Assembly (NCBI GenBank): GCA_016794525.1
Contig: JAEUJY010000008.1
Coordinates: 1 to 44,439 of the forward strand
Source of the DNA: Myxococcales bacterium
GTDB taxonomy: Bacteria; Myxococcota_A; Polyangia; Haliangiales; Haliangiaceae
Direction: 5' to 3'
DNA: 44,439 nucleotides
Shown piece by piece: positions 1 through 39,328 of the stretch (within the stretch, counting starts at the first letter, position 1; every line of letters begins with the position of its first letter). The translations under genes were made by a program, and so were the position numbers. Below the pieces are notes generated by a model, which was given only the letters and a program-made list of their open reading frames with translations, had not been told where the DNA came from and did no database searches.

Positions 1-9
1 GAACTCCCT

Positions 10-83
10 GGAAGGGGCTTTCGCAAAGCCCCTTCCCCGTCGGGGGCATGCCCCGACGGGGCCCCAACCCGAAACGCGAGAAC
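10..83 (+). repeat. Double-hairpin intergenic repeat, copy A
   Basis: Hairpin 1 has a perfect 12-bp stem (10-21 with 25-36, loop CGC). Hairpin 2 pairs 35-45 with 51-61 as a perfect 11-bp stem around a GCATG loop. A tail follows that starts CCCCAACCCG and ends near GCGAGAACC. The same plan recurs at 11637, 21987 (minus) and 39317 (minus), with different stem sequences but conserved pairing. No T-run follows, so this is not a textbook intrinsic terminator. It lies 3' of the leftward methyltransferase gene and probably just after a rightward gene ending off the left edge. Confidence 0.75.
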
Positions 84-144
84 CACATCGCGGATCAGCG
101 ATCGGAACGACCCGCTGCGGCTGGTGCCCCGCGCGGCGGGCGGC

Positions 145-10574: not shown

Positions 10575-11630
10575 GTGGGAAGTCCGCCCAGCGGGACGAA
10601 GGCGAGTCGGCACAACTCGCCCAACCTCGACATCCTGCGCGCCATCGCGGTGATGACCGTGGTGGTCGATCACCTGATCCCCACCTTCGCGTTCCGCGGC
10701 TACGTCATCCCGCACACGGTGTCGGAGTTGACGCTGCACATCGGCCAGTCGGGCGTGCTGGCGTTCTTCGTCCACACCAGCCTGGTGTTGATGTACTCGC
10801 TCGAGCGCCTGCCGGCGCCCACCCACTGGGCCCAGGCCTGGCGCTTCTACGTGCGTCGCGCGTTCCGCATCTACCCGCTGGCGGTGGTGTGCGTGATCGC
10901 CGTGGTCTTGCTGCAGTGGCCCGAGGCCAGCTGGAAGCCGTACCACCCGGTGACCTGGCAGGAGGTCGCGGCCAACCTGATGCTGGTCCAGAACCTGTGG
11001 ACCGGGCACAGCGTGCTGACGCCGCTGTGGAGCCTGCCGTACGAGGTCGAGATGTACCTGGTGCTGCCGGTGGCGTACCTGATCGCGCGCCGCCGCGACG
11101 GCCTGCAGTGGATGCTGACCCTGGTGGTGGCGTCGACGCTGGCTGGCTACGCGTTCGGCAAGCTCAAGCACGGGCACATGAACCTGGCCGCCTACGTCCC
11201 GTGCTTCCTGGCCGGCGTGGCCTGCTACCTCGTCCGCGACCGGCTGCGACCGCGGATCCCCGGGCGCTGGTGGGTGGTGTTCGTCGTCGGCGCGGTGTCC
11301 GCCTACTGCGTGGTCCACACGATCTCGGACCGGCTGATCTACTGGATCGGCTGGCTGTACTGCATCACGATCGCCGCGGCGATCCCGCTGTTCCAGGACA
11401 GCCCGACGGTCTGGCTCAACCGCGCCGCCGCGACCGTGGCCAAGTACTCCTACGGCATCTACCTGCTGCACGCGCCGGCGCTGTACGTCGTGTTCGGCCT
11501 GTGGCAACCCGGCGGCCTGCTGGTCGAGGTGTCGCTGTTCATCGCGCTGACCGCGGTGCTGGCGGTGGCGGCCTACCACCTGATCGAGGAGCCGCTGGTG
11601 CGCCTCGGCCGGCGGCTCAGCGACCACTGA
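10575..11630 (+). CDS. Acyltransferase-3 family (OafA/YrhL-like) membrane protein
   Basis: A 351-residue integral membrane acyltransferase of the type that O-acylates sugars or glycans. The N-terminal segment LDILRAIAVMTVVVDH carries the conserved RAxAV...DH element, and YVRRAFRIYPLAVV is the second hallmark. About ten hydrophobic helices follow, with a C-terminal HLIEEPLVRLGRRL motif. The GTG at 10575 is chosen because homology starts shortly after; an in-frame TTG at 10557 is a close alternative, and neither has a clear ribosome site. It lies 46 nt after the permeases, so it may modify an exported glycan or lipid. A double-hairpin repeat begins 6 nt after its stop. Confidence 0.78.
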   Translation: MGSPPSGTKASRHNSPNLDILRAIAVMTVVVDHLIPTFAFRGYVIPHTVSELTLHIGQSGVLAFFVHTSLVLMYSLERLPAPTHWAQAWRFYVRRAFRIYPLAVVCVIAVVLLQWPEASWKPYHPVTWQEVAANLMLVQNLWTGHSVLTPLWSLPYEVEMYLVLPVAYLIARRRDGLQWMLTLVVASTLAGYAFGKLKHGHMNLAAYVPCFLAGVACYLVRDRLRPRIPGRWWVVFVVGAVSAYCVVHTISDRLIYWIGWLYCITIAAAIPLFQDSPTVWLNRAAATVAKYSYGIYLLHAPALYVVFGLWQPGGLLVEVSLFIALTAVLAVAAYHLIEEPLVRLGRRLSDH

Positions 11631-11636
11631 ACTACT

Positions 11637-11762
11637 GGGAGGGTCTCTCGCGAGACCCTCCCCCGTGCGGGGTCATGCCCCCACACGGGGCCCCCACCCA
11701 AGACGGCAGTCCGCGTGGCCTCCCGGGTCACGCGGAGCGGTCGGGCGGGTCGAGCGGCGTGA
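11637..11762 (+). repeat. Double-hairpin intergenic repeat, copy B (with long tail)
   Basis: Hairpin 1 pairs 11637-11647 with 11652-11662 (11 bp, loop TCGC). Hairpin 2 pairs CCCCGTG (11661-11667) with CACGGGG (11684-11690), plus an inner GGGG/CCCC and a TCATG loop. The tail 11702-11762 matches 55 of 61 positions of copy D (39195-39255, opposite strand). A further 7-bp stem, CCGCGTG/CACGCGG, lies inside the tail. The element starts 6 nt after the acyltransferase stop and may end that transcription unit, but no T-run follows. Confidence 0.8.
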
Positions 11763-19829: not shown

Positions 19830-21899
19830 TCACGCCAGCCCGAGGCCGGCGAGGCCGAGATCGATCAGCTTGATGAACGGGAACGGCGCGATCACGCCGC
19901 CGAGGCCGTAGACGAGGAGGTTGCGGCGCAGCGTCACCGCCGCCGGCGCCGGGCGCAGCCTCAGGCCGCGCAGCGCCAGCGGGATCAGCGCGACGATCAC
20001 CAGCGCGTTGAAGATCACCGCGGCCAGGATCGCGCTGTGCGGGCTGTGCAGGTGCATGACGTCGAGCGTGCGCAGCTGCGGGTACACCGCCGCGAACGCC
20101 GCCGGGATGATCGCGAAGTACTTGGCGACGTCGTTGGCGATCGAGAACGTCGTCAGCGCGCCGCGCGTCGCCAGGAGCTGCTTGCCGACGCCGACGATCT
20201 CGATGAGCTTGGTCGGGTTGGAGTCGAGGTCGACCATCTTGCCGGCCTCCGTCGCGGCCTGGGTTCCGGTGGTCATCGCCACCGCCACGTCGGCCTGGGC
20301 CAGCGCCGGCGCGTCGTTGGTGCCGTCGCCGGTCATCGCCACCAGGTGCCCCGCCGCCTGGTACGCGCGGATCTTGGCCAGCTTGGCCTCGGGGGTCGCC
20401 TCGGCCAGGAAGTCGTCGACCCCAGCCTCGGCGGCGATCGCCGCGGCGGTCAGCGGGTTGTCGCCGGTGATCATCACGGTGGTGATGCCCAGCCGGCGCA
20501 GCTCGGCGAAGCGCTCCTTGATGCCGTGCTTGACCACGTCGGTGAGCGCGATGACCCCGAGCACCCGCGCCCCCTCGGCGACCACCAGCGGCGTCGCGCC
20601 CTTGCCGGCCACCGCGTCGACCTGGGCCTTGATCTCGGGCGGCAGAGCGGCGGTGCCGAGCGCCGCGACGTGGCGGGTGATCGCGTCGGCCGCGCCCTTG
20701 CGGATCGCGCGGCCGCCGACGTCGACGCCGCTCATCCGGGTCTGGGCGGTGAACGGCACGAACGCCGCGTCGGCCGGCGCCCGCACGGCCTGGGCCCCGA
20801 GCAGCGCCTGGCCCAGCGTCACGATGCTCTTGCCCTCGGGGGTGTCGTCGGCCCACGACGCCAGCACCGCCGCCTCGGCCAGCGCCGCGGCGGTGACGCC
20901 GCGCGCCGGGTGGAACGCGGTCGCCTGGCGGTTGCCGTGGGTGATCGTGCCGGTCTTGTCGAGGAACAGCACGTCGATGTCGCCGGCGGCCTCGACCGCG
21001 CGGCCCGAGGTGGCGATCACGTTGGCCTGGATCATCCGGTCCATGCCGGCGATGCCGATCGCCGACAACAGCCCGCCGATCGTCGTCGGGATCAGGCACA
21101 CCAGCAGCGCCACCAGGATCGCCATCGACACCGGCGCGCCGCCGCCGGCGCGATCGACCGCGTCCCGGGAGAACGGCAACAGCGTCGCGGTCACGACCAG
21201 GAACACCAGCGTCAGCCCGGCCAGCAGGATGTCGAGCGCGATCTCGTTGGGGGTCTTGCCGCGGCGCGCGCCCTCGACCATCGCGATCATGCGATCGAGG
21301 AACGAGCTGCCGGGCGCGGCGGTGATGCGGATGATCAGCTGGTCCGACAGCACGCGGGTGCCGCCGGTGACCGCGCAGCGATCGCCGCCGCTCTCGCGCA
21401 CCACCGGCGCGCTCTCGCCGGTGATCGCGCTCTCGTCGACCGACGCCACCCCGAGCACGATGTCGCCGTCGCCGGGGATCAGCTCGCCGGCCGAGACCTT
21501 GACCAGCATGCCGGGGGTGAGCTGCGACGACGGGACGCCGACGACGTTGGCGTCGAACCGCGCCTCGGCCACGCGGTTGGCGAGCACGTCCTGGCGGGCC
21601 CGGCGCAGCGCCGCGGCCTGCGCCTTGCCGCGGCCCTCGGCCATCGCCTCGGCGAAGTTGGCGAACCACACGGTCAGCCACAGCCACGCGGTCAGCGCGC
21701 CGATGAAGCCGGCGTCGCGCGCGCCGGTGGCCAGCGCGTGGACGAACATCAGCGTCGTGAACGCGCTGCCCAGCTCGACGACGAACATCACCGGCGACCG
21801 GATCATCCGGCGCGGGTCGAGCTTGACCAGCGCCTGCCACAGCGCGGGCTTGACGATCGCGGCCTCGAACAGCGGGCGCGCGGCGGGACGGGACGACAT
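19830..21899 (-). CDS. kdpB: KdpB, P-type K+-transporting ATPase catalytic subunit
   Basis: A 689-residue P1A-type ATPase in the inner membrane. The phosphorylation motif is [10 protein letters not shown], the actuator loop is [13 protein letters not shown], and the hinge motif is [19 protein letters not shown]-terminal helices, nucleotide-binding domain and C-terminal helices all follow family order. It hydrolyses ATP to drive K+ uptake through KdpA. The ATG at 21899 has a GAAAGG ribosome site. Unlike most kdp junctions here, it is separated from kdpA by 92 nt, almost all taken up by a double-hairpin repeat. Confidence 0.96.
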
Positions 21900-21920
21900 G
21901 ACGGGCCTTTCAGCGCGGGT

Positions 21921-21987
21921 CTCGCGAATCGGGAGGGGGACCCGCGGGGCGTGACCCCGCGGGGGAGGGCTTGTCGACAAGCCCTCC
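21921..21987 (-). repeat. Double-hairpin intergenic repeat, copy C, inside the kdp operon
   Basis: Read on the minus strand, hairpin 1 is a perfect 24-nt palindrome (21964-21987, centre GTCGAC) beginning 4 nt after the kdpA stop. Hairpin 2 pairs 21941-21949 with 21955-21963 (9 bp, loop TCACG on the minus strand). The tail CCCCCTCCCGATTCGCGAG resembles copy A more than B or D. It lies in the only long gap within kdpF-kdpC, so it may act on the mRNA as an attenuator, a processing site or a stabilising 3' structure for kdpFA. Confidence 0.8.
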
Positions 21988-21991
21988 GAGG

Positions 21992-23692
21992 TCACAGCGC
22001 TTCGGCGATCGGGCCGAGCGCCAGCGCGGGGACCAGGGTGAGGGCGCCGACCAGGAGCACGGTGGCGACCAGGAACGCGACGAACAGCGGGCTGTCGGTG
22101 GGCAGCGTGCCGGCGGTGACCGGCACGCGCTTCTTGCGGGCCAGCGCCCCGGCGAGGCCGAGCACCGGCAGCAGCACGCCGAAGCGCCCGATCCACATCA
22201 GCACGCCCTGGGTGGTGGCCCAGAACGGGCCGCTGGCGGTGAGGCCGCCGAACGCCGAGCCGTTGTTGTTGGCCGCCGAGGTCATCGCGTAGAGCATCTC
22301 GGTGAAGCCGTGCGCCCCGCCGTTGCCGAGCGTCGTGGCCTGGCTGGTCGAGCACGCCAGCGCGACGCCGACCAGCAGCGCGACCGCCGGCACGAGCACG
22401 CCCAGCGACGCCAGCTTCATCTCGTGGGCCTCGATCTTCTTGCCCATCAGCTCGGGCGTGCGCCCGATCATCAGCCCCGACAGGAACACCGCGACGATCG
22501 CGAACAAGAGCAGGCCGTACAGCCCCGAGCCGACGCCGCCGAACGCCACCTCGCCCAGCCCCATCAGCGCGATCGTCGCGGCGCCGCTCAGCGGCTGGTA
22601 GCTGTCGTGCATCGCGTTGACCGAGCCGTTCGAGGCGGCGGTGGTGGCGCCGGCCCACAGCCCGGCCTCGGCGGCGGTGAAGCGCTGCTCCTTGCCCTCG
22701 AGGTTGCCGGCGCGGGCGTCGATCGCGACCGCGCCGTCGTCGTCGATCGCCGCGATCGCCGGCGTCGCCGCCAGCTCCTGGTGGATCGTCACCGCCGCGA
22801 ACGGGACGAACAAGAGCCACATCGTCACCAGGAACGCCACGCCCTGCCGGCGGCGCCCGACCATCCGCCCGAACGCCAGGCACAGCGCCGCCGGGATCAG
22901 CAGGATCGCCACGCACTCGAGGAAGTTGGTCAGCGGCGTCGGGTTCTCGAACGGGTGCGCCGAGTTGGCGTTGAAGTAGCCGCCGCCGTTGGTGCCGAGC
23001 TGCTTGATCGCCACCTGCGACGCCACCGGGCCGACCGCGAGCTGGCCGTGCCCGCCGCCGTCGAGCGCGGCGACGTCGACGTGGCCGGCGCCGGTCTGCG
23101 GCACACCCTGCCACACCAGCACCAGCGCCATCACGATCGCCATCGGCACCAGCACGTAGAGCGTGGCCCGGGTGAGATCGACCCAGAAGTTGCCGACGCC
23201 CGACGCCTCGGCGCGGCTGAAGCCGCGCACCAGCGCCACCAGCACGGCGATGCCGGTCGCGGCCGAGACGAAGTTCTGCACCGTCAGCGCCAGCGCCGCC
23301 ACCAGGTGGCTCATCGTGGTCTCGCCGCCGTAGGCCTGCCAGTTGGTGTTGGTCACGAAGCTGACCGCGGTGTTCCAGGCCACCGGCGGCGCCACCGCCG
23401 GCAGGTCGTTGGGGTTGCCGGGCAGGCTGCCCTGCAGCCGCTGCAGCAGGTACACCACCACCACGCCGGCGAGGTTGAACACCACGACCGCGGTCGCGTA
23501 GCGGTGCCACGGCATGTCCTCGTCGCGATCGACGCCGCCGACGCGGTAGAGCGCGCGCTCGAGCGGGCCGAGCACGCGCCGCGCGCGGGTGGTGCCGTCG
23601 AACACGCGCGCCAGGTAGCCACCCAGCGGCCACGCCAGCAGCGACAGCGCGGCGACGAACGCGATCAGCCCGATGACGCTGGCGCCGGTCAC
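21992..23692 (-). CDS. kdpA: KdpA, K+-transporting ATPase channel-like subunit
   Basis: A 566-residue polytopic membrane protein of the K+-transporter superfamily, with about ten helices. Selectivity-filter and family motifs are [49 protein letters not shown] and the helix end [18 protein letters not shown]. It carries K+ in the KdpFABC complex. The GTG start at 23692 overlaps the kdpF stop (GTGA), implying translational coupling. Confidence 0.96.
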
Positions 23693-39194: not shown

Positions 39195-39317
39195 TCACGC
39201 CGCGCGACCCGCCCGACCGCTCCGCGCCGCCCGGGAGGCCTCGCGGACAGCCGTCGCGGAGGGGAGGCTCGGCGGGGGCATGACCCCGCCGAGGGGAGGC
39301 GCGGCGACGCGCCTCCC
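39195..39317 (-). repeat. Double-hairpin intergenic repeat, copy D (with long tail)
   Basis: On the minus strand it begins 11 nt after the glutamate dehydrogenase stop. Hairpin 1 pairs 39294-39303 with 39308-39317 (10 bp). Hairpin 2 pairs CTCGGCGGGG (39268-39277 as written on the plus strand) with CCCCGCCGAG (39284-39293). The tail 39195-39255 is 55/61 identical to copy B. Stem letters differ from the other copies, yet complementarity is kept. Confidence 0.8.
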
Positions 39318-39328
39318 TGCAATACGGC

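What the first reader, a model, noticed from the sequence alone, without database searches (positions are those of the whole stretch)
21900..21991. A repeat copy sits inside the kdp operon between kdpA and kdpB
Seen: most neighbouring kdp junctions overlap or are a few bases apart, but kdpA-kdpB is separated by 92 nt filled by copy C, with a perfect 24-nt palindrome 4 nt after the kdpA stop. Known: KdpA and KdpB form a stoichiometric complex. Inference: the element either inserted and is tolerated, or sets the relative amount of kdpFA and kdpBC mRNA.
Basis: partly seen in the sequence, partly recalled or inferred. Interest (0 to 1): 0.55.

Follow-up and report, generated by a model that had tools for sequence, protein, structure and literature searches.

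The report
Triple-helix-type repeat at gene ends
Between two potassium-pump genes sits one of more than a hundred copies of a short two-hairpin element that this bacterium and some of its relatives carry, usually the same way round and directly behind the ends of genes; its sequence pattern suggests a three-stranded structure and a role in ending or shielding messages, which has not been tested.

Summary
In detail: kdpA stop, 92 nt, kdpB ATG, with a 24-nt perfect palindrome 4 nt after the stop. The filler is one copy of a dispersed ~75-nt element (149 model matches in this genome, a capped count): hairpin H1, hairpin H2, C-rich tail. Copies sit at gene 3' ends in sense orientation: of 117 own-genome copies tested, 100 have a clear same-direction gene upstream (7 opposite, 10 unclear), and in 93 of the 100 the stop lies -14 to +2 nt from H1. 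Some directly follow tRNA genes. Nine same-family relatives have at most 29 nt between kdpA and kdpB and no element there, so insertion is likely. H1 and H2 covary. Unexpectedly, the tail tracks H1's purine arm in the parallel sense at one fixed register (G faces C at 593 of 605 positions; A faces A or T at 171 of 183), which matches the purine-motif triplet code on the opposite DNA strand. Sequence-different versions occur in other families of the class. My reading: a repeat-borne 3'-end element (partial terminator or 3' barrier) with a potential intrastrand triplex, probably lowering kdpBC relative to kdpFA. The function is inferred. Nearest known kinds: PIT/BoxC triplex repeats and REPs.

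The parts
21992..23692 (-). kdpA; its stop codon TGA (21994-21992) lies 4 nt before the first hairpin
   Evidence: Pfam KdpA PF03814 E 3e-225
21964..21987 (-). H1: perfect 24-nt palindrome, 10-bp stem, loop TCGA; the lower part of the 5' arm is purine-rich (GGAGGG)
   Evidence: covariation
21941..21963 (-). H2: CCCGCGGGG TCACG CCCCGCGGG hairpin directly after H1
21931..21940 (-). C-rich tail TCCCCCTCCC, complementary to the H1 purine arm in the parallel sense (candidate third strand)
   Evidence: family rule
21920..21930 (-). 3' motif GATTCGCGAGA (commoner form in the family GANACGCGAGA); other copies change to different downstream sequence after GANAC
21906..21911 (-). probable Shine-Dalgarno GAAAGG of kdpB, behind the element, 6 nt from the ATG
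   Evidence: sequence, (inference)
19830..21899 (-). kdpB
   Evidence: Pfam E1-E2_ATPase 2e-27, Hydrolase 4e-26
3..83 (+). another copy, at the very start of the contig (no upstream sequence to test)
11630..11712 (+). another copy, directly after the stop TGA (11628-11630) of the upstream gene
39245..39325 (-). another copy, just after the stop (39331-39329) of the upstream gene

Best explanation
The 92-nt spacer is a late-inserted copy of a dispersed, repeat-borne 3'-end element. Shown by sequence: two covarying hairpins plus a C-rich tail that follows a parallel, triplet-like code with the first hairpin; strongly biased sense orientation directly behind the 3' ends of protein genes and some tRNA genes; absence at this junction in the relatives read. 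Inferred: the element works during or after transcription of the gene in front of it, as a barrier at the 3' end (partial termination or arrest of RNA polymerase, and/or a block to 3'-to-5' decay of the upstream message), helped by an intrastrand triple helix (purine-motif on the template DNA strand, or pyrimidine-motif in the RNA). In kdp it would leave more kdpFA than kdpBC message, and kdpB keeps its own ribosome-binding site behind the element. How copies spread is unknown.
For: Dispersed family: 45 BLAST rows (four of them other-strand reads) and 149 model matches in the own genome. Position: of 117 copies with enough upstream sequence, 100 have the best coding frame in the same direction, 7 opposite, 10 unclear; in 93 of the 100 the stop is -14 to +2 nt from H1. 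Counting arrays once: 98 vs 7 in this genome, two-sided p 1e-21, and 17 vs 0 in sister species G006, p 1.5e-5. tRNA genes: element match 1-4 nt behind the tRNA in 4 cases, 40 nt behind in a fifth (32 loci, chosen mainly because the upstream frame was absent or unclear). Downstream genes are shifted towards opposite-direction or no gene: 25 +, 31 -, 29 none of 85, against 177, 100, 41 of 318 gene ends without a listed element; Fisher p 0.010 for + vs -. Structure: 95.3% of cells paired, 10 of 19 pairs with two-sided changes, 0 of 500 shuffles. Tail code at one fixed parallel register: 147 of 158 copies over five positions, 69 of 80 distinct arm/tail pairs, best of 2000 shuffles 37; phi 0.94 parallel against 0.58 for the best antiparallel register tried. 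Orientation test: the C-run behind the tail's last non-C equals the G-run behind the arm's last A in 140 of 156 copies; in 62 distinct pairs where the G-runs before and after the A differ, the tail follows the one after in 53 and the one before in 1. Insertion. Same architecture with other sequence elsewhere in the class.
Against: No RNA data. No T-tract, so not a canonical intrinsic terminator. Copies inside operons (kdpA-kdpB, gapdh-pgk) show that it cannot be a full terminator unless the next gene has its own promoter. 7 of 117 copies have an opposite-strand gene upstream. If the antiparallel register may slide over four positions per copy, the same lax code fits 148 of 158 copies too (best single antiparallel register 96), and strict Watson-Crick complement fits only 63 of 158 in either sense; the parallel claim rests on the fixed register and. 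The nearest known triplex repeats (PIT/BoxC) are reported to lack terminator activity (PMC4666352, part 1 of the introduction read). A facing A (92 of 183) does not fit a pyrimidine-motif RNA triplex, and that paper says purine-motif triplexes cannot form in RNA, so a triplex may act on DNA and not on the message. Wobble types in the stems do not settle the strand: distinct events H2 15 A-C, 3 G-T, 22 other (some at loop edges); H1 6 A-C, 7 G-T, 5 other.
Confidence: 0.5

Rival explanations
1. A purely selfish REP/MITE-like DNA element, moved by a RAYT/TIRYT-type (HUH, Y1) transposase on single-stranded DNA. It survives where it does least harm, just behind genes, and has no function in expression.
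For: Multi-copy and species-patchy (149 matches in G000, 83 in G006, both capped, 1 in G002, 0 in four other same-genus genomes), tandem arrays in G006. 15 related Y1-transposase copies of one group in G000; 9 of the 17 Y1 loci fetched hold an element match at E below 1e-4, and several Y1 transposons join element tails right after GANAC.
Against: Least harm does not explain the orientation bias, the tight distance to the upstream gene in convergent pairs or the tRNA cases. G006 has many copies but no Y1_Tnp match passed E 0.001 (0 of 9 candidates). The Y1 transposon has its own inverted ends and looks like a passenger in the element.
Confidence: 0.27
2. An ordinary set of terminators that look alike by descent and composition, with no third-strand interaction; the tail is only a spacer.
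For: 3'-end position, strong hairpins, enrichment before opposite-direction genes.
Against: No T-tract. Loop, H2, tail and GANAC motif are conserved between copies beyond what a terminator is known to need (recalled), and the tail follows the arm position by position.
Confidence: 0.12
3. A translation-level device: a hairpin so close to the stop codon that it slows the terminating ribosome and lowers output of the upstream gene, as recalled for E. coli REPs near stop codons (Liang, Rudd and Deutscher 2015, recalled, not seen here).
For: Stop codon commonly 4-9 nt before H1.
Against: Copies directly after tRNA genes, where no ribosome terminates.
Confidence: 0.06

Closest known systems
PIT / BoxC / TM_ECO intrastrand triplex repeats (PMC4666352: abstract, part 1 of 2 of the introduction, section 18, and passages found by term)
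   Same: Short G/C-rich intergenic repeats in many copies; one strand can fold a hairpin whose purine arm also takes a third strand. The purine motif described there (antiparallel third strand, G-GC and A(T)-AT triplets) is the code found here, read on the opposite strand.
   Different: Different sequence and strand order (here class III on the sense strand, class I on the opposite strand; TM_ECO is class II).
REP/BIME and REPIN elements with RAYT transposases (PMC3733652 and PMC8266576: passages found by term; PMC3116915: search listing only)
   Same: Short palindromic extragenic repeats, species-patchy, sometimes in arrays; RAYT-type genes present. [quoted passage not shown]
   Different: No GTAG or CGTC tag seen by eye; 75 nt with two unlike hairpins and a tail; one preferred orientation to the upstream gene. 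The transposase here carries its own inverted ends (TIRYT-like in the terms of PMC3733652).
Protective 3'-end triple helices such as MALAT1 (PMC11411715: search listing with start of abstract only)
   Same: Idea of a triple helix at an RNA 3' end that shields the transcript.
   Different: Eukaryotic and U-A rich (recalled); here G-C rich, and the code fits a DNA purine-motif triplex better than an RNA one.

Membership tests
PIT / intrastrand triplex repeat | Purine arm, complementary pyrimidine arm and third strand on one strand, obeying triplet rules | tested here: met
   G faces C 593 of 605; A faces A or T 171 of 183; permutations. Sequence evidence only, no biophysics; an antiparallel fit with a sliding register is not excluded by fit alone
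PIT / intrastrand triplex repeat | Short loops (1-6 nt in the published search) between strands | tested here: not met
   A ~20-25-nt hairpin H2 lies between the second and third strands
PIT / intrastrand triplex repeat | No strand or distance bias to genes (reported for TM_ECO) | tested here: not met
   98 vs 7 orientation, stop at -15..+3 nt in 92 of 98 clusters
REP (GTAG or CGTC super-families) | Tetranucleotide tag GTAG or CGTC at one end of a 20-40-nt palindrome | tested here: not met
   No such constant tag at H1 or H2 edges in the alignments, by eye
REP (GTAG or CGTC super-families) | Repeat flanks a RAYT gene as its ends | tested here: inconclusive
   Y1 genes lie in or beside elements but have their own inverted ends; no passing Y1 match in G006
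Canonical intrinsic terminator | GC hairpin followed by a T-rich tract | tested here: not met
   0 terminator-like sites in 21800-22100; tail is TCCCCCTCCC
Known Rfam family | Covariance-model match at the gathering score | tested here: not met
   None in the window; only two tRNAs in 18 related loci
3'-end barrier (mRNA protection or termination) | RNA 3' ends or changed decay at copies | not testable with these tools
   No RNA-seq available

The most novel reading that the evidence does not exclude
A lineage-wide transcript-end signal in one bacterial class (myxobacterial, by inference) that uses a triple helix (template-strand purine triplex or RNA triplex) instead of a U-tract to stop polymerase or protect the 3' end, and that spreads as a dispersed repeat, re-wiring operons such as kdpFABC and gapdh-pgk when it lands between their genes.
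Probability: 0.27. Interest if true: 0.87.

Novelty: new variant of a known kind. Interest (0 to 1): 0.64.

Why it matters
Intrastrand triplex repeats have been described in bacteria without a clear role in gene expression (PMC4666352, parts read). Here is a version whose three-strand code is written in the variation between copies, and which is placed with a strong bias in position and orientation at gene ends, some tRNA genes included. That makes a role for a triple helix at transcript ends directly testable with RNA 3'-end mapping and with paired arm/tail mutants. It would also show how a mobile-like repeat can change subunit ratios inside an operon for a complex such as KdpFABC.

Tried and rejected
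Intrinsic terminator scan: nothing, no T-tract. Rfam: nothing at the gathering score for the element; at E up to 5 only weak matches far below each family's threshold. Same-genus kdp junction: kdpA gave no match at E 1e-50 in the six other same-genus genomes, so I used the family level. Antiparallel pairing of the tail with the H1 arm: one fixed register fits at most 96 of 158 copies by the lax code, but with a register free over four positions 148 of 158 (70 of 80 distinct; shuffles mean 43, maximum 53), as many as the fixed parallel register (147). I disfavour it because it needs a different register for each subfamily, because strict Watson-Crick antiparallel fits only 63 of 158 (strict parallel also 63), and because the tail's C-run follows the G-run after the A and not before it. 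Integron attC and group II intron ideas were considered from memory and dropped because copies lie on many contigs on both strands. A RAYT transposase as sole mobiliser is weakened by G006. A pyrimidine-motif RNA triplex is not rejected but is disfavoured by A facing A. The wobble-type test for which strand folds is mixed. An exact-pattern scan of the 85,000-species collection found nothing (the tool says records of this or a very near genome may be left out); the looser model later found sequence-different versions in the class.

Rows dropped before counts: of 154 model matches I used 119 (35 weaker or opposite-strand partial matches left out); of 61. Of the 119, two have too little upstream sequence; one of them (the window copy at 3-83) was wrongly scored on the whole window and counted as unclear, and one G006 cluster was likewise wrongly scored; one search repeats both counts with this mended and those numbers are used here. 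11 of 169 copies could not be parsed for the arm/tail test, and the window's own copy was mis-anchored there by a base change in its GANAC motif, so it counts as a misfit although by eye it fits. Per copy, 26 of 50 G006 copies had unclear upstream scores, mostly later members of arrays. In the class-wide context test 1 of 60 copies was too short and 27 of 59 had unclear coding scores (the codon table was trained on this genome); of the other 32, 26 were same-direction and 6 opposite, 21 near a stop. Class-wide matches were found with a model that already contains the arm and tail, so they are not independent evidence for the parallel code. One class copy (L307) shows an extra G in the arm with an extra C in the tail, another (L302) an extra C without it (by eye). 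Some downstream distances are artefacts of my stop search.

Full report
What is there. On the minus strand kdpA ends at 21992, 92 nt follow, and kdpB starts at 21899. Directly behind the stop come 4 nt, the perfect 24-nt palindrome H1 (21987-21964), hairpin H2 (21963-21941), a C-rich tail (21940-21931), the motif GATTCGCGAGA (21930-21920), and then a probable ribosome-binding site GAAAGG for kdpB. The single-strand RNA fold of this stretch shows H1 and H2, at -48.9 kcal/mol against -37.2 for shuffles, z -3.3, 0 of 200 as low.

It is a repeat. BLAST of the junction against the own genome (9.8 Mb, 177 contigs) gives 45 rows, one of them the query and four the same palindrome read on the other strand of a listed copy. 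A covariance model built from 36 copies gives 149 matches with 150 candidates scored, so the true number may be higher. The window has four copies. Several subfamilies share one build: gene end, H1 with a tetra- or triloop, H2, C-rich tail, GANACG. On the MAFFT alignment of 36 copies, 95.3% of cells pair; 10 of 19 pairs show changes on both sides, with 0 of 500 shuffles reaching this, and slid versions fall far below.

It marks gene ends. I scored 300 nt upstream of 119 copies with a codon table from window genes (repeated with a fault mended). 117 had enough sequence: 100 same-direction, 7 opposite, 10 unclear. In 93 of the 100 the in-frame stop ends between 14 nt before and 2 nt after the H1 start (TGA 87, TAG 8, TAA 5 among all 100). 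In some copies the stop is the first bases of H1 itself. Counting arrays once gives 98 against 7 of 113 clusters (6 unclear, 2 too short; p 1e-21). In the sister species G006 it is 17 against 0 of 23 clusters (3 unclear, 3 too short; p 1.5e-5), 14 of the 17 near the stop. In 31 convergent gene pairs the distance to the upstream gene is 0-14 nt in 29, while the distance to the facing gene varies, though part of the latter values are artefacts of my search. Copies also sit directly behind tRNA genes: the match starts 1-4 nt behind tRNA-Asn (L083), tRNA-Gln (L063), tRNA-Val (L317) and tRNA-Ala (L319), and 40 nt behind tRNA-Leu (L123). I scanned 32 loci, chosen mainly because the upstream frame was absent or unclear or a tRNA end was in view. 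So the anchor seems to be the end of the gene, not the stop codon. Gene ends with an element are followed less often by a same-direction gene (25 +, 31 -, 29 none of 85) than gene ends without a listed one (177, 100, 41 of 318; Fisher p 0.010 for + against -), as expected for ends of transcription units, but part of the copies lie inside apparent operons.

It was probably inserted. In nine kdpA loci read from nine genomes of the same family, kdpB overlaps kdpA or follows within 29 nt and no element is present (distances read by eye). At gapdh-pgk the gap is 1, 1, 3 and 7 nt in four same-genus species; this genome has 87 nt with the element, and G006 has 120 nt with other palindromes (the partial locus of G003 was not read). 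Behind the ETF-alpha gene only this genome of the six whose 3' end was read has the element; the protein ends are conserved.

The tail code. In 158 of 169 copies that could be parsed (119 from this genome, 50 from G006 went in) I compared the five arm positions next to the upper stem with the last five tail positions. Where the arm has G the tail has C in 593 of 605 positions; where the arm has A the tail has A (92), T (79), G (8) or C (4). The position of the A moves between subfamilies (GAGGG, GGAGG, GAAGG, AGAGG, AAGGG, and GGGGG without A) and the tail mostly follows (CACCC or CTCCC, CCTCC or CCACC, CTTCC or CATCC, TCTCC, AACCC, CCCCC). At one fixed register the relation runs parallel (phi 0.94; best antiparallel register tried 0.58). 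For distinct arm/tail pairs phi is 0.89, and none of 10,000 permutations reaches it (maximum 0.57). 147 of 158 copies and 69 of 80 distinct pairs satisfy the code in all five positions (shuffle mean 26.8, maximum 37 of 2000). Against this: the code is lax (A may face any base but C); strict Watson-Crick complement fits 63 of 158 in either sense; and the lax code fits antiparallel in 148 of 158 if the register may slide over four positions. What separates the two is register. The number of C behind the tail's last non-C equals the number of G behind the arm's last A in 140 of 156 copies and 67 of 78 distinct pairs (shuffle mean 36.3, maximum 52 of 10,000); where the G-runs before and after the A differ (62 distinct pairs) the tail follows the one after in 53, the one before in 1, neither in 8. 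Related copies are not independent. A parallel complement of a purine arm is what a third strand in a triple helix needs. A or T opposite A and C opposite G read, on the complementary strand, as T or A over A-T and G over G-C: the purine-motif triplets as given in PMC4666352. A pyrimidine-motif triplex in the RNA would want T only. So the code favours a DNA structure on the template strand, while the position at gene ends suggests a transcriptional role. The two fit together if the structure forms or acts during transcription. This last step is inference.

Relatives. In a 56-genome set the model matched 5 genomes at E 0.001, with many matches in this genome, G006 and G039. In 289 genomes of the class it matched 33 (22 genera, this one included), several at the scoring cap. 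A draw of 282 genomes from the phylum gave 9 at E 0.0001, all of the same class, this genome included. Copies from G039, G159, G223, G248, G234, G145, G153, G217, G192, G162 and others have other loops, other H2 and other flanks but the same H1-H2-tail build. In 60 such copies, 32 had a clear upstream frame: 26 same-direction, 6 opposite, 21 near a stop. These matches were chosen by a model that contains the arm and tail.

Mobility. The genome holds 17 Y1 (HUH) transposase matches, 15 of one group at roughly 77-95% DNA identity. 9 of the 17 fetched loci hold an element match at E below 1e-4, and several of these transposons, with inverted ends, join element tails right after GANAC. This resembles TIRYT elements (PMC3733652, passages) and insertion sequences found inside REPs (ISPpu9, PMC8450116, listing with start of abstract). 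G006 has many elements but no passing Y1 match, so this enzyme is not shown to move the element. Relatives of the transposase in named genomes are Myxococcales MAGs, a Deltaproteobacteria MAG and Anaeromyxobacter, which is my only basis for placing the window among myxobacteria.

Mechanism. I commit to a 3'-end element that partly stops polymerase and/or shields the upstream message; for kdp this predicts more kdpFA than kdpBC message. The structural family, its position and the tail code are shown by sequence. Any effect on expression, the existence of the triplex and the way of spread are not shown. In the ten paper searches that ran I saw no description of this element, which is weak evidence of absence because the library is partial and I saw listings for the most part.

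Noticed in passing
L147-L161 (own genome), e.g. L152, L150, L157, L160, L154: 15 related copies of a RAYT/TIRYT-like Y1 transposase transposon with inverted ends of about CTGATCATTCATCACATCTCC (read by eye from several copies); several joined to element tails after GANAC, in L152 with CCCCCGCGAC on both sides.
   Followed up: partly
L178 (G006, gapdh-pgk junction): Where this genome has the element between gapdh and pgk, sister species G006 has a different 120-nt stretch with several hairpin-like palindromes; four other species have 1-7 nt.
   Followed up: no
L194, L205, L206, L212, L213 (G006): Tandem arrays of up to five of the copies used here in one direction behind one gene, with palindrome-bearing spacers between copies.
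   Followed up: partly
window 1-84: The contig begins in a copy of the element, so some contig breaks of this assembly may fall in it.
   Followed up: no
own-genome and G006 copies: The third base of GANAC tends to go with the H1 loop: T with loop TCGA, G with TCGC/TCAC, A with the TTTCGCAAA type; few independent events, unexplained.
   Followed up: partly
L116, L121, L122, L135 (own genome): Short tandem repeats behind some copies repeat the tail motif GAAACGCGAGAGC with a copy-specific spacer.
   Followed up: no
L083 (own genome): Dense tRNA cluster (10 tRNA genes in 5 kb), with an element directly behind a tRNA-Asn gene.
   Followed up: partly
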